From the NCBI GenBank assembly GCA_947650285.1, contig CANTFL010001180.1:248001-312000 (forward strand): DNA of 64,000 nucleotides, in the 5' to 3' direction. A program made the position numbers and the translations under genes. This document shows, piece by piece, positions 6,759 through 14,740 of this stretch; positions within the stretch are counted from its first letter, which is position 1, and every line of letters starts with the position of its first letter. Source of the DNA: Hyaloperonospora brassicae. Taxonomy: Eukaryota > Oomycota > Peronosporomycetes > Peronosporales > Peronosporaceae. The notes beneath the pieces were generated by a model. It was not told where the DNA came from, did no database searches, and saw nothing but the letters and a program-made list of their open reading frames with translations.

Positions 6759-7150
6759 TGTAACGGGGCACACCCTTGCGTAACTTAACGCAAGGGATTT
6801 GGAGTGCCCCGACGGACGTACACGTGGCAAGCGAGGAAGCGTAGGTAGGGTAAAAGTAGAACTGTTATATTAATAAATTAAGTCTTTAAACTACTGTCTC
6901 TTCGTTTGACTTAATTCAATTATACTAATATAACTGCATGTATGGTGACGTCTCGTCACCACTCATTGCGCGCGTCTTGCGGCGATTGGTGGGTTGATAT
7001 CATCACGATATCAACCAATGAACAGACCCTTTGGTCGACCCTTCAATATCACCACTTTGGTGATATTGTTTTAAAGAATATCCATCTTTATATTCTTTAT
7101 TGTCACTTTCCTTAAAGTGACAATTTCATGTAACGGGCTGCCCCGTTACA
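6759..7150 (-). repeat. 3' LTR (left copy) of the young Ty3 element
   Basis: 392 bp, starting TGTAACGGGGCA and ending CCCCGTTACA on the plus strand, so the termini are inverted TGTAAC...GTTACA. It is nearly identical to 14351-14740. It contains several perfect hairpins, for example arms 6992-7001/7007-7016 and 7044-7053/7059-7068. Confidence 0.95.
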
Positions 7151-7163
7151 TCACCCCCCCTTA
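7151..7163 (-). promoter_or_regulatory. Polypurine tract of the young Ty3 element
   Basis: On the minus strand AAGGGGGGGTGA lies directly against the TG start of the 3' LTR, the position of the plus-strand DNA primer in LTR elements. Confidence 0.8.
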
Positions 7164-7280
7164 ACTGATAGTCACCGTGTGACTATCGAAATATGGAGGC
7201 CACCCGTTGGCCACCATTGGGACAGGGAGCACTTGTTTGGTCCGTTCCATTCACTTTCCGCTTGACCTCGCATAGTTAAC

Positions 7281-8886
7281 ATGTCTATGCGAGGTGACTC
7301 AAGACCCACACAGCCTGGTGCTGTGCAAGCCTCTGCGGCAGACGCTTCGTCGTCTGCCGCCCCTTCTTCGCCTGCAGCAACAGGTGCTGCAGGTGCACGC
7401 GGTATCACGCCGCGTGCGCACGATGACCCCGATGTGGAGGTCATCTACTCTGGCGAGTCAGACGTGTCTGACTCGGGCAATGCTCCAGAGGCGTCTCGCT
7501 CACCGGCGACGCCTCAGTATTCGCCAAGGCCACTGCCGAACGAACGGACTCGTGATTCGCATCACAGTCTGTTCGGCAGTGATGACGATGATCAGGGTGG
7601 TGAGTTCTATTCTTCACCACCGCCGGCTCGTGCGTCTTCGCACGAGCGTGATGACGATGGCGCGAGCCGTCGTCAATCTGGGAACCGTGGTACCGACAAG
7701 GGTACCACTGTGAAGCGTGATGAGTTGAAGCCGTGGCGTTTGCCCGAACAACTCATCAATAGCCTGTCTCACGAGACAGGCCAACACCATCGAATACCCT
7801 TATTCGATGCGACTGAGCTTCACGGCTTGAGATCCCAGCGCGAAGAACTTTCGCGCTGAAGAAGACTTTTATCTCGATGTCTTCCTTAGACATCGATGGT
7901 ACAACAGCAACCAAAAGCGTGACAAAACATCGCTTTTGGCTGCGTGGAACGCGTTCGTCCAAAACGTAAAGAATTTTGGACGAGAAGGGTGGCTCAAGAA
8001 ACTTGAGGCAACACGCCTCAGGTTCGAACGGCGAACGCCAACCGGTGCTAGGTACCGGTTGCATTGTTTATCGAGTGAGGCAGGCATTCCTTGCCTCACA
8101 TGGGGAGACCCTTGTGCGAGTTGTGTTGACAACTCGCAGCGTGCACATAGGGATGTGTACTCCCTAAATTCGCCCTGGGGAAGGGCACATCTCTCGGAGG
8201 AGATGCGTGACGCGATTGCAAACTTGCAATCCGTCTACAAGCGCCTAGGGCGCGTGTTTACCGATGGGCCACAGGACTCATCGGATGGGTCTCGTCATAC
8301 TGGTGGACGAGACCTTCAACATCCATCAACAGCTGAGAGCGGGGCTCCCAGCTGTTCCAAGAGGGTGGATACCCCCGCCACTGGACGAGGTAGCTCGTCC
8401 TTGATCCTGAATCGTCACGGTGGTTCAAGATACGCTCCACTAGAAAGCGTTGATCACCGTGAGCATCCACCAAAGGATGTGGTGGAGGAGGAAAGACCTC
8501 CTCCAGATGATTCGGTTCACCATCTCGACCCTTACGAGATGGATCGCGCAATCGATGAATTGCGCGATGACTTGAAGCACGAGCGCGACCGGCGCTACGC
8601 TTTGACCGATACCGTGCGGAAGAACCGCAAGGGTCACGAGGCTGATCGGGCGAGGGATCGCGCCGATTATGCCACAGCGCAGCTTCAGGTCGAGCGGGAT
8701 GTCCGCTCCCTTTTCGGCGAGCTGGCGACAGCTCGCGGAGAGATATCTCGGTTGAGTTCCGAGGTATCATATCTGCGCGACCAGACGGATCGTCTGGAGC
8801 GCGAACGCAAGAACTTGATGGATGTTCTTGAACGTGGGGGCTATCTTCATCGGAAGAAGAAGGCTCGTACTGACAGTACGACCTAA
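7281..8886 (+). CDS. Antisense ORF of the Ty3 element, coiled-coil protein (one frameshift)
   Basis: On the plus strand, opposite to gag-pol, two open frames of 192 codons (7281-7859) and 316 codons (7936-8886) make one reading of about 535 codons if a single-base frame change near 7830-7857 is allowed; the second frame is open upstream to that point and continues as EEDFYLDVFLRHRWYN. The N-terminal part is rich in Ala, Ser, Pro and Asp. The last 120 residues are strongly helical and heptad-like (for example ERDVRSLFGELATARGEISR), ending in a basic HRKKKAR tail. It overlaps the end of pol by 629 bp, opposite the linker and chromodomain. I recognise no family. Other LTR elements, mainly of plants, are known to carry antisense ORFs near the 3' LTR; a function here is not known. 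Confidence 0.55.
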
Positions 8887-9490
8887 GCCTCCCCACGTAA
8901 AACGTAGGATGCGTGCGCATCCTACGTGGCAATTCGATTGTGTATGCATTGCCCTTGCGATGCAACACTCGAAATGGCCCAATGTATTTCGGCAGTAGTT
9001 TGCTACTGCCGACACTAGTGACTGCATGTCCAGGTAGGTTTACCGTTGACAGTAGTACTAGGTCGTTAACCTTAAATGAAAGAACATTTGCTCTTCCATT
9101 CTTGTCTGCGTTCCGTTTCTGACGGTCCACCGCATTTGCGATGGAGTCCTGAACGAAACGGACTACCGCTTCTCGAGTCAGCAGGAAGTTCTCTGCTGAC
9201 TCTTTGTTTTGTCTGGCAGTGCGCTTCGTGCGCACTGCTAAGAGATTGCTCTCTTCTTCAGCGAGGTTGTCTTCTTCCTCGCTGGCATAATCGTTGGCGA
9301 TGCTGAATATACCAGCATCGTCATCATCATCCGAATCAATAATAGCGTCTTCGCTATTATTGAGATGATCTTCTTCATCGATGTCGACTTGATCGACATC
9401 GGCATCATACGTGACGACGTTTGCGTCGACACGTGATGAGCAAGAGCCAAAACGGTTTTTGCTCGAGCGAGTCCCTCCCCCCTTATCCAA
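8258..9490 (-). CDS. Ty3 pol, C-terminal part: integrase GPY/F module and chromodomain
   Basis: This 410-codon frame continues pol after the frame break at the G run 9477-9482, in the -1 frame relative to the upstream pol frame, consistent with loss of one G or with slippage there. It holds an acidic Asp/Glu-rich stretch (roughly residues 20-75), the integrase C-terminal GPY/F-like module (KYIGPFRVL, then THPTFYVGRLRSY), a long Ser/Pro/Arg linker, and a C-terminal chromodomain (RFLVERILNH...YLVQWRGYPPSWNSWEP) as in chromoviruses, where it guides integration to chromatin marks. The acidic stretch between integrase core and GPY/F is longer than I would expect. The reverse strand of the linker encodes the antisense coiled coil. 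Confidence 0.85.
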   Translation of the reverse strand: MDKGGGTRSSKNRFGSCSSRVDANVVTYDADVDQVDIDEEDHLNNSEDAIIDSDDDDDAGIFSIANDYASEEEDNLAEEESNLLAVRTKRTARQNKESAENFLLTREAVVRFVQDSIANAVDRQKRNADKNGRANVLSFKVNDLVLLSTVNLPGHAVTSVGSSKLLPKYIGPFRVLHRKGNAYTIELPRRMRTHPTFYVGRLRSYCQYEPSSSDEDSPHVQEHPSSSCVRAPDDPSGRADMIPRNSTEISLRELSPARRKGSGHPARPEAALWHNRRDPSPDQPRDPCGSSARYRSKRSAGRARASSHRAIHRLRDPSRKGRDGEPNHLEEVFPPPPHPLVDAHGDQRFLVERILNHRDDSGSRTSYLVQWRGYPPSWNSWEPRSQLLMDVEGLVHQYDETHPMSPVAHR

Positions 9491-14306: not shown

Positions 14307-14340
14307 GTTGGATGATGTGGTCCTTGGAAGGACTACAAAG

Positions 14341-14348
14341 TGCTACCA
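14341..14348 (-). promoter_or_regulatory. Primer binding site, tRNA-iMet-like
   Basis: Two bases inside the 5' LTR the minus strand reads TGGTAGCA, complementary to the 3' end of initiator methionine tRNAs that end UGCUACCA. The second Ty3 element has the same eight bases in the same place (29955-29962). Confidence 0.75.
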
Positions 14349-14350
14349 GG

Positions 14351-14740
14351 TGTAACGGGGCACACCCTTGCGTAACTTAACGCAAGGGATTTGGGTGCCC
14401 CGACGGACGTACACGTGGCGAGCGAGGAAGCGTAGGTAGGGTAAAAGTAGAACTGTTATATTAATAAATTAAGTCTTTAAACTACTGTCTCTTCGTTTGA
14501 CTTAATTCAATTATACTAATATAACTGCATGTATGGTGACGTCTCGTCACCACTCATTGCGCGCGTCTTGCGGCGATTGGTGGGTTGATATCATCACGAT
14601 ATCAACCAATGAACAGACCCTTTGGTCGACCCTTCAATATCACCACTTTGGTGATATTGTTTAAAGAATATCCATCTTTATATTCTTTATTGTCACTTTC
14701 CTTAAAGTGACAATATCATGTAACGGGCTGCCCCGTTACA
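14351..14740 (-). repeat. 5' LTR (right copy) of the young Ty3 element
   Basis: 390 bp, the partner of 6759-7150. It carries the promoter and transcript start for the minus-strand element; I could not place a TATA box with confidence. It is followed by GGCTG at 14741-14745, the right copy of the target-site duplication. Confidence 0.95.

What the first reader, a model, noticed from the sequence alone, without database searches (positions are those of the whole stretch)
6759..14740. A retrotransposon whose entire sequence, including coding DNA, is tiled with short hairpins
Reading the element, perfect or near-perfect inverted repeats with 6-12 bp arms and 2-8 bp loops follow one another about every 20-40 bp in LTRs, gag, pol and the antisense ORF. 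Examples: arms 7455-7463/7466-7474 (GAGTCAGAC, loop 2), 9681-9690/9699-9708 (TCTGACCATC), 10662-10670/10675-10683 (GTCTATCTC), 11203-11212/11217-11226 (CAACTTATGC, loop 4). Host genes in the window and the pol region of the second Ty3 element do not show this by eye, although the proteins are homologous. To keep this through coding sequence needs strong constraint on codon choice, or a mutational mechanism that makes neighbouring complementary copies. Possible roles, all inference: genome-wide ordered RNA structure that helps packaging, hides the RNA from Dicer or stalls RT; or a by-product of repeated template switching in reverse transcription.
Basis: partly seen in the sequence, partly recalled or inferred. 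Interest (0 to 1): 0.88.

Follow-up and report, generated by a model that had tools for sequence, protein, structure and literature searches.

The report
Retrotransposon tiled with selected hairpins
A young Ty3-type jumping gene of a downy mildew carries a short, near-perfect hairpin about every 40 bases along its length, protein-coding parts included, and its copies and older relatives show that this pairing is kept by selection on both strands alike, a property that the searches made here did not find described for such elements.

Summary
The element (6759-14740, sense on the minus strand) holds 128 perfect inverted repeats (arm >=7, loop 2-10), 16 per kb; the rest of the window has 0.7, and MS2, Qbeta and rRNA 0.3-3.6. 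Codon-preserving shuffles of pol give 3.2 +/- 1.7 against 61. Three tests say the pairing is selected, not a by-product. (1) In 30 young copies private mutations hit stems as often as spacers, but variants shared by three or more copies are 2.5 to 7.5 times rarer in stems, depending on how stems are defined. (2) Two old relatives (78-81% identical) show 40 and 34 compensatory pair changes against 18 and 10 expected. (3) Changes split evenly between arms, and no pair is doubly changed among young copies. The constraint looks strand-symmetric: G-T and A-C mismatches are equally rare, and sense and antisense fold equally well, unlike four RNA controls. A sense RNA alone is therefore not the natural reading. 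One related clade is untiled; a third has its own, mostly non-homologous hairpins. Function is inferred: most likely both transcripts fold on themselves and so resist double-stranded RNA and RNA silencing (confidence about 0.4).

The parts
6754..6758 (.). target-site duplication GGCTG, left copy (right copy 14741-14745)
   Evidence: read directly
6759..7150 (-). 3' LTR (392 bp); 6 hairpins
   Evidence: 7 perfect repeats against 0.2 in shuffles
6773..14740 (.). the tile: 161 non-overlapping hairpins from first to last, 50% coverage
7152..7166 (-). polypurine tract next to the 3' LTR, free of hairpins
   Evidence: identity as polypurine tract from position and sequence
7281..7859 (+). antisense ORF 1 (192 aa), tiled
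7936..8886 (+). antisense ORF 2 (316 aa), tiled, with homologues in other downy mildews
8258..9490 (-). ORF with Tf2-1-like SH3 and chromodomain, overlapping the end of pol in another frame
9238..13101 (-). pol: protease, reverse transcriptase, RNase H, integrase; 82 hairpins
9336..9363 (.). example hairpin, 12-bp arms, loop 4; four of its pairs are Watson-Crick after change on both sides in L049
13152..14306 (-). gag; 22 hairpins
14339..14350 (-). primer-binding region next to the 5' LTR, free of hairpins (tRNA partner not tested)
14351..14740 (-). 5' LTR (390 bp); 6 hairpins
14741..14745 (.). target-site duplication GGCTG, right copy
   Evidence: read directly

Best explanation
This is a young, chromodomain-bearing Ty3-type LTR retrotransposon whose whole sequence has been shaped, through point substitutions, into a chain of short local hairpins. 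Shown: the tile exists, is older than the subfamily, is held by purifying selection and compensatory change, and is Watson-Crick and strand-symmetric. Inferred: a G-U pair that is good for one strand is an A-C mismatch in the other, so the equal rarity of both suggests that sense and antisense copies must both fold. The likeliest use is that sense transcripts and antisense transcripts (the element has antisense ORFs, one of them conserved) each collapse quickly into hairpins of 9-10 bp, shorter than what Dicer is generally taken to cut (recalled), so that long sense-antisense duplexes, copying by an RNA-dependent RNA polymerase, and siRNA pairing are hindered. It would be a retroelement counterpart of the genome-wide folding with which some RNA viruses avoid sensing.
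For: Density and shuffles. Depletion of shared, not of private, variants in stems. Compensatory changes beyond permutation. Strand symmetry: 22 G-T and 22 A-C mismatches, equal folding of the strands with four asymmetric RNA controls. Antisense ORF 2 has homologues in Peronospora and Hyaloperonospora. In P. infestans small RNAs cover Gypsy elements in both orientations and 21-nt ones depend on Dicer (PMC3522703, abstract and passages). A related clade lacks the tile and a third has mostly different hairpins, as for an answer to a host pressure rather than a core function.
Against: No transcript, small-RNA or probing data. 24% of 21-nt windows contain no stem base, so the shield is not complete, and gaps are no more regular than random. 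Loops are A-rich in sense (246 A, 167 T), a strand asymmetry that symmetric selection does not predict. The tile also covers stretches with no known antisense gene. The helix count with wobble pairs has little power: pooled controls give 35 GU and 19 A-C against 44 and 41 in the element.
Confidence: 0.4

Rival explanations
1. The hairpins act in DNA: in the long single-stranded minus-strand cDNA made in the particle they compact or protect it, or order reverse transcription and strand transfer.
For: No sign of tolerated sense GU pairs. Loops are T-rich on the strand that equals minus-strand cDNA. The primer-binding and polypurine regions are hairpin-free, though each such spot is free by chance with probability about 0.32.
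Against: No loop-energy advantage for that strand with DNA parameters. One related clade with a homologous pol does without the tile.
Confidence: 0.25
2. Structure of the sense genomic RNA alone: packaging, compaction, stability or translation control.
For: Strong folding of the sense strand; A-rich loops in sense, as in the 16S and 23S controls.
Against: GU pairs are not preferred over A-C in stems (22 and 22); sense folds no better than antisense (p 0.51) while four RNA controls do; single changes in stems are no more often sense GU than sense A-C (20 and 28; 79 and 95, 58 and 68).
Confidence: 0.2
3. Double-stranded DNA or chromatin function, such as cruciforms in the integrated copy or in circular DNA.
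For: Strand symmetry.
Against: Variants private to one integrated copy are not depleted in stems, so nothing selects on the single resident copy; selection is seen only on what propagates.
Confidence: 0.07
4. By-product of template switching during reverse transcription, with arm-to-arm correction.
For: It would give Watson-Crick, strand-symmetric hairpins with loops of 4-6, as seen.
Against: Arm differences are balanced; 0 of 69 variable pairs are doubly changed among young copies; shared variants are depleted in stems.
Confidence: 0.06
5. Chance, composition or assembly artefact.
For: None found.
Against: Shuffles; 137-141 stems in each of 30 copies from many contigs; covariation; background density in two arbitrary 10-kb stretches.
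Confidence: 0.01

Closest known systems
[quoted passage not shown]
   Same: Structure along the whole genome through coding sequence; present in some and not other related groups; proposed to hinder sensing of RNA.
   Different: Here it is a retrotransposon, almost purely local perfect hairpins, equal on both strands, with 16 repeats of arm >=7 per kb.
Folded genomes of RNA phages MS2 and Qbeta
   Same: Folding well above ordinary sequence; recalled role in keeping plus and minus strands apart.
   Different: MS2 and Qbeta have 2.0 and 3.6 repeats per kb against 16.0, sense folds better than antisense, and GU pairs are commoner.
Chronos Ty3 elements of oomycetes (PMC5348765, passages)
   Same: Oomycete Ty3/Gypsy elements with a chromodomain.
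   Different: Chronos has a second RNase H next to the Ty3 one; none was found by Pfam in this pol. 'Hairpin' and 'inverted repeat' do not occur in the paper's main text.
Peronospora effusa pol protein P0006
   Same: 85% identical over 1,232 residues.

Membership tests
Ty3/Gypsy LTR retrotransposon | two long terminal repeats and target-site duplication | tested here: met
   LTRs 99% identical, GGCTG on both sides
Ty3/Gypsy LTR retrotransposon | gag, and pol in the order protease, RT, RNase H, integrase | tested here: met
Ty3/Gypsy LTR retrotransposon | primer-binding site matching a tRNA | not tested
   a TGGTAGCAC follows the 5' LTR; no tRNA comparison was made
Chronos | second, additional RNase H (aRNH) | tested here: not met
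   Pfam finds only the Ty3-type RNase H in pol; P0003, the overlapping ORF, has only SH3 and chromodomain
Chronos | chromodomain | tested here: met
GORS | folding energy above composition along the whole genome | tested here: met
   all regions exceed shuffles in hairpin count; mean energy -0.42 per nt against -0.25 for the rest of the window
GORS | signature of selection on one RNA strand (sense folds better, GU used) | tested here: not met
   this is my test, not part of the published definition
GORS | structure present in RNA in cells; effect on RNA sensing | not testable with these tools
   needs probing and functional assays

The most novel reading that the evidence does not exclude
A retroelement genome held under a strand-symmetric hairpin constraint along its whole length, acting in DNA or in both transcripts, which has arisen more than once among Ty3 lineages of one downy mildew as an answer to a shared host pressure.
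Probability: 0.4. Interest if true: 0.92.

Novelty: new variant of a known kind. Interest (0 to 1): 0.85.

Why it matters
If the reading holds, a mobile element has laid a second, structural code over nearly all its coding DNA. One genome then offers a natural experiment: a tiled clade, an untiled related clade and a third clade with its own hairpins, with homologous pol genes. Small-RNA and probing data could show directly whether whole-genome folding protects a retroelement from silencing. It also warns that selection on synonymous sites of transposable elements can be strong, which bears on how copies are dated.

Tried and rejected
Template switching as the cause. A shared repeated hairpin unit: only 26 of 2,398 9-mers are shared between hairpins. 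Insertion of hairpins: pol aligns to the P. effusa protein over 1,232 residues with 4 gaps; whether that element is tiled is unknown. Known RNA families: none reaches its Rfam gathering score in 6000-15500. Regular spacing: not found. A loop-energy preference of one strand: not found. Higher conservation of stem codons to the closest proteins (P0006 248 of 269 against 362 of 411): suggestive only, no test run. Codon register in gag: 8, 6 and 8, no preference, unlike pol. L054 and L055 as covariation evidence: 3 and 2 compensatory pairs, reached by some permutations, so not significant. Relatives in viral contigs: none in 2 scans. In genome contigs: one distant contig of a bacterial MAG, 31%, not used. 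Arm length falls weakly with arm GC (rho -0.23, p 0.003), in keeping with a stability target; not pressed further.

Literature: ten searches listed no paper whose title or abstract reports hairpin tiling in an LTR retrotransposon; the library lacks most subscription papers and all preprints. Of the listed papers three were opened, by abstract and passages only (PMC5348765, PMC3522703, PMC3950689); none was read whole.
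Full report
What is there. The stretch 6759-14740 is a complete Ty3-type LTR retrotransposon whose sense strand is the minus strand: 5' LTR 14740-14351, gag 14306-13152, pol 13101-9238, an overlapping ORF 9490-8258 with an SH3-like domain and a chromodomain, two ORFs on the opposite strand at 7281-7859 and 7936-8886, and 3' LTR 7150-6759, with GGCTG on both sides. 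A neighbouring ORF with RXLR-type WY matches marks the host as an oomycete. A 96% match to antisense ORF 2 comes from Hyaloperonospora brassicae on a contig of 248,241 bases, the length of contig C41 of the window's assembly, so the host is probably that species (inference). The family is young: 42 of 43 listed LTR matches are 99-100% identical, and the 36 scored pol matches are all 99-100% identical over the full or nearly full length, 35 of 36 without a stop. Only the best candidates are scored by that tool, so older copies are under-represented.

The observation. The four cited hairpins are exact. There are 128 perfect inverted repeats with arms of at least 7 and loops of 2-10, against 39 in 53.9 kb of the rest of the window; with arms of at least 9 it is 75 against 2. 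Allowing mismatches, 161 non-overlapping hairpins cover half of the element, and 1,503 of 1,564 pairs are Watson-Crick. Codon-preserving shuffles of pol give 3.2 +/- 1.7 (60 shuffles, maximum 7) against 61, with like excess in gag and both antisense ORFs; of two other ORFs one has none and one has 4 against 0.8, maximum 4. Density per kb is 16.0, against 2.0 in MS2, 3.6 in Qbeta, 1.9 in 16S and 0.3 in 23S rRNA. Direct repeats at like spacing are not enriched: 3 in the element, 30 in 53.9 kb.

Fit to the coding sequence. In pol, hairpins in registers where the third codon position faces a first or second position number 37 and 33, those where third faces third 12 (against equal shares a chi-square of about 13, worked by hand). 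That is expected if pairing is bought with synonymous changes. Gag shows no preference (8, 8 and 6). The pol protein is ordinary: 85% identical to a Peronospora effusa protein over 1,232 residues with 4 gaps.

Selection now. For 30 of the 36 pol matches sequence was held (window 7741-14601). Biallelic sites were used; of 292 variable positions this leaves 283. Changes private to one copy are as common in stems as in spacers (0.0204, 0.0214; loops 0.0354), but variants in at least three copies, which must have passed through transposition, are 0.0030 in stems against 0.0226 in spacers and 0.0255 in loops (Fisher 1.2e-7). Because these stems were defined on the window's copy, which biases the count, it was repeated with stems of any copy (0.0080 vs 0.0204, p 1.2e-4) and of at least 15 copies (0.0037 vs 0.0227, p 5e-7). 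At four-fold sites, with stems of the window's copy, shared variants (two or more copies) are 4 of 327 against 25 of 447 (p 0.0017), and singletons do not differ (p 0.46). Selection is seen on what propagates.

Selection over longer times. LTR loci led to two old, broken relatives in the same genome, L048 and L049 (77.6% and 81.3% identical). Stems diverge less (0.187, 0.139) than spacers (0.247, 0.213) and loops (0.261, 0.245). Pairs changed on both sides that stay Watson-Crick number 40 and 34, against 18.2 +/- 3.9 and 10.2 +/- 2.9 when partner outcomes are permuted among pairs of the same type; none of 2,000 permutations reaches the observed values; 13 of these pairs are shared by both relatives, in the same state. 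Another 20 and 16 double changes are not Watson-Crick, and single changes that break a pair are many (337 and 215), as expected of decaying copies. Two nearer relatives, L054 and L055 (95% and 94% over 2,400 columns), add 3 and 2, not significant. In all 65 pairs in 49 of 161 hairpins are compensated in at least one of the four relatives. The tile is therefore older than the subfamily.

Not template switching. Differences from L048 and L049 are split between arms no more unevenly than coin tosses, in L049 rather more evenly. None of 69 variable pairs among the young copies has changed on both sides, which frequent arm-to-arm correction would produce.

Strand symmetry. Mismatches inside stems are 22 G-T and 22 A-C. 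Helices of at least 8 pairs with one or two GU number 44, with A-C 41; with at least 7 pairs 60 and 48, with at least 6 82 and 84. This count has little power, for the controls pooled give 35 and 19, 59 and 47, and 115 and 91. Folding is clearer: in 150-nt windows sense and antisense of the element are equal (-0.412, -0.410, p 0.51), while MS2, Qbeta, 16S and 23S all fold better in sense (p 0.021, 0.007, 2.5e-4, 6e-7); GU is 5% of predicted pairs on both strands against 10-17% in these controls and 12% in ordinary stretches of the window. Against full symmetry stands one fact: loops are A-rich in sense (246 A, 167 T; p 1.2e-4), in the LTR, antisense, pol and gag parts, though not in 13 loop bases of the short gap between gag and pol or LTR, and without an energy advantage for either strand. 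The simplest reading is that both strands, or DNA, must fold; a sense-strand share cannot be excluded.

Distribution. In this genome five fetched stretches of one Ty3 clade (L039, L040, L041, L043, L053; 78-89% identical to each other) have 0-0.7 repeats of arm >=8 per kb, as does the window's second element, whose clade I did not test. The focal clade has 13.5 (focal), 9.6 (L055), 7.5 (L054), 5.0 (L049) and 1.7 (L048); whether the lower values are decay or an earlier state is not settled. A third clade, seen in one copy (L050, 57% pol identity), has 32 repeats of arm >=7 against 3.3 in shuffles (maximum 8 of 40) and 22 of arm >=8 against 0.9 (maximum 3). Of 12 L050 hairpins in the aligned pol, 1 coincides with a focal hairpin (shifted mean 0.13, maximum 1). 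So its hairpins were gained separately or have turned over almost wholly. Two arbitrary 10-kb stretches are at background.

How it may work. Shown: presence, age, selection, symmetry of folding. Suggestive: the primer-binding and polypurine regions are hairpin-free, each by chance at about 0.32. Inferred: both transcripts fold fast into hairpins too short for Dicer and so resist long duplexes. Context: antisense ORF 2 has homologues in other downy mildews, and in P. infestans small RNAs cover Gypsy elements in both orientations, with Dicer-dependent 21-mers (PMC3522703, abstract and passages). Against it: 24% of 21-nt windows hold no stem base. The nearest known kind is GORS of RNA viruses (PMC3950689, abstract and passages), from which this differs in strand symmetry and in being a retroelement. 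Action in the minus-strand cDNA is the main rival.

Limits. No expression, small-RNA or probing data; no DNA of relatives from other species; few copies per clade; one protein search of the genome did not complete.

Noticed in passing
window 7936-8886 (+): Antisense ORF 2 has 43 homologues at E <= 0.001, among them H. arabidopsidis entries named 'RxLR effector candidate protein'; these names may be misannotations of a retrotransposon ORF.
   Followed up: partly
window 8258-9490 (-): The SH3-like domain and chromodomain lie in an ORF that overlaps the end of pol by 253 bp in another frame, while several relatives have the chromodomain on the pol protein; the 36 pol matches share the same 1331-1339 aa open frame, so this is the state of the family.
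   Followed up: partly
L006 (C765:165907-169297): A lone LTR of the young family sits inside an old relative of the same clade.
   Followed up: partly
L050 4949-5337: Tandem repeat of about 66 bp (76-86% self-identity at offsets of 66, 132 and 198) near the start of the region aligned to pol in the third clade.
   Followed up: no
window 6797-6942 and 14389-14533: The longest hairpin-free gap of the tile, in each LTR; by eye it holds a longer imperfect stem with a large loop.
   Followed up: no
window 4411-6465 (-): A 684-aa ORF without Pfam match has 4 repeats of arm >=7 against 0.8 in codon shuffles, maximum 4.
   Followed up: no
window 15959-17791 (+): A 610-aa ORF with RXLR-type WY-domain matches lies 1.2 kb from the element.
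   Followed up: no
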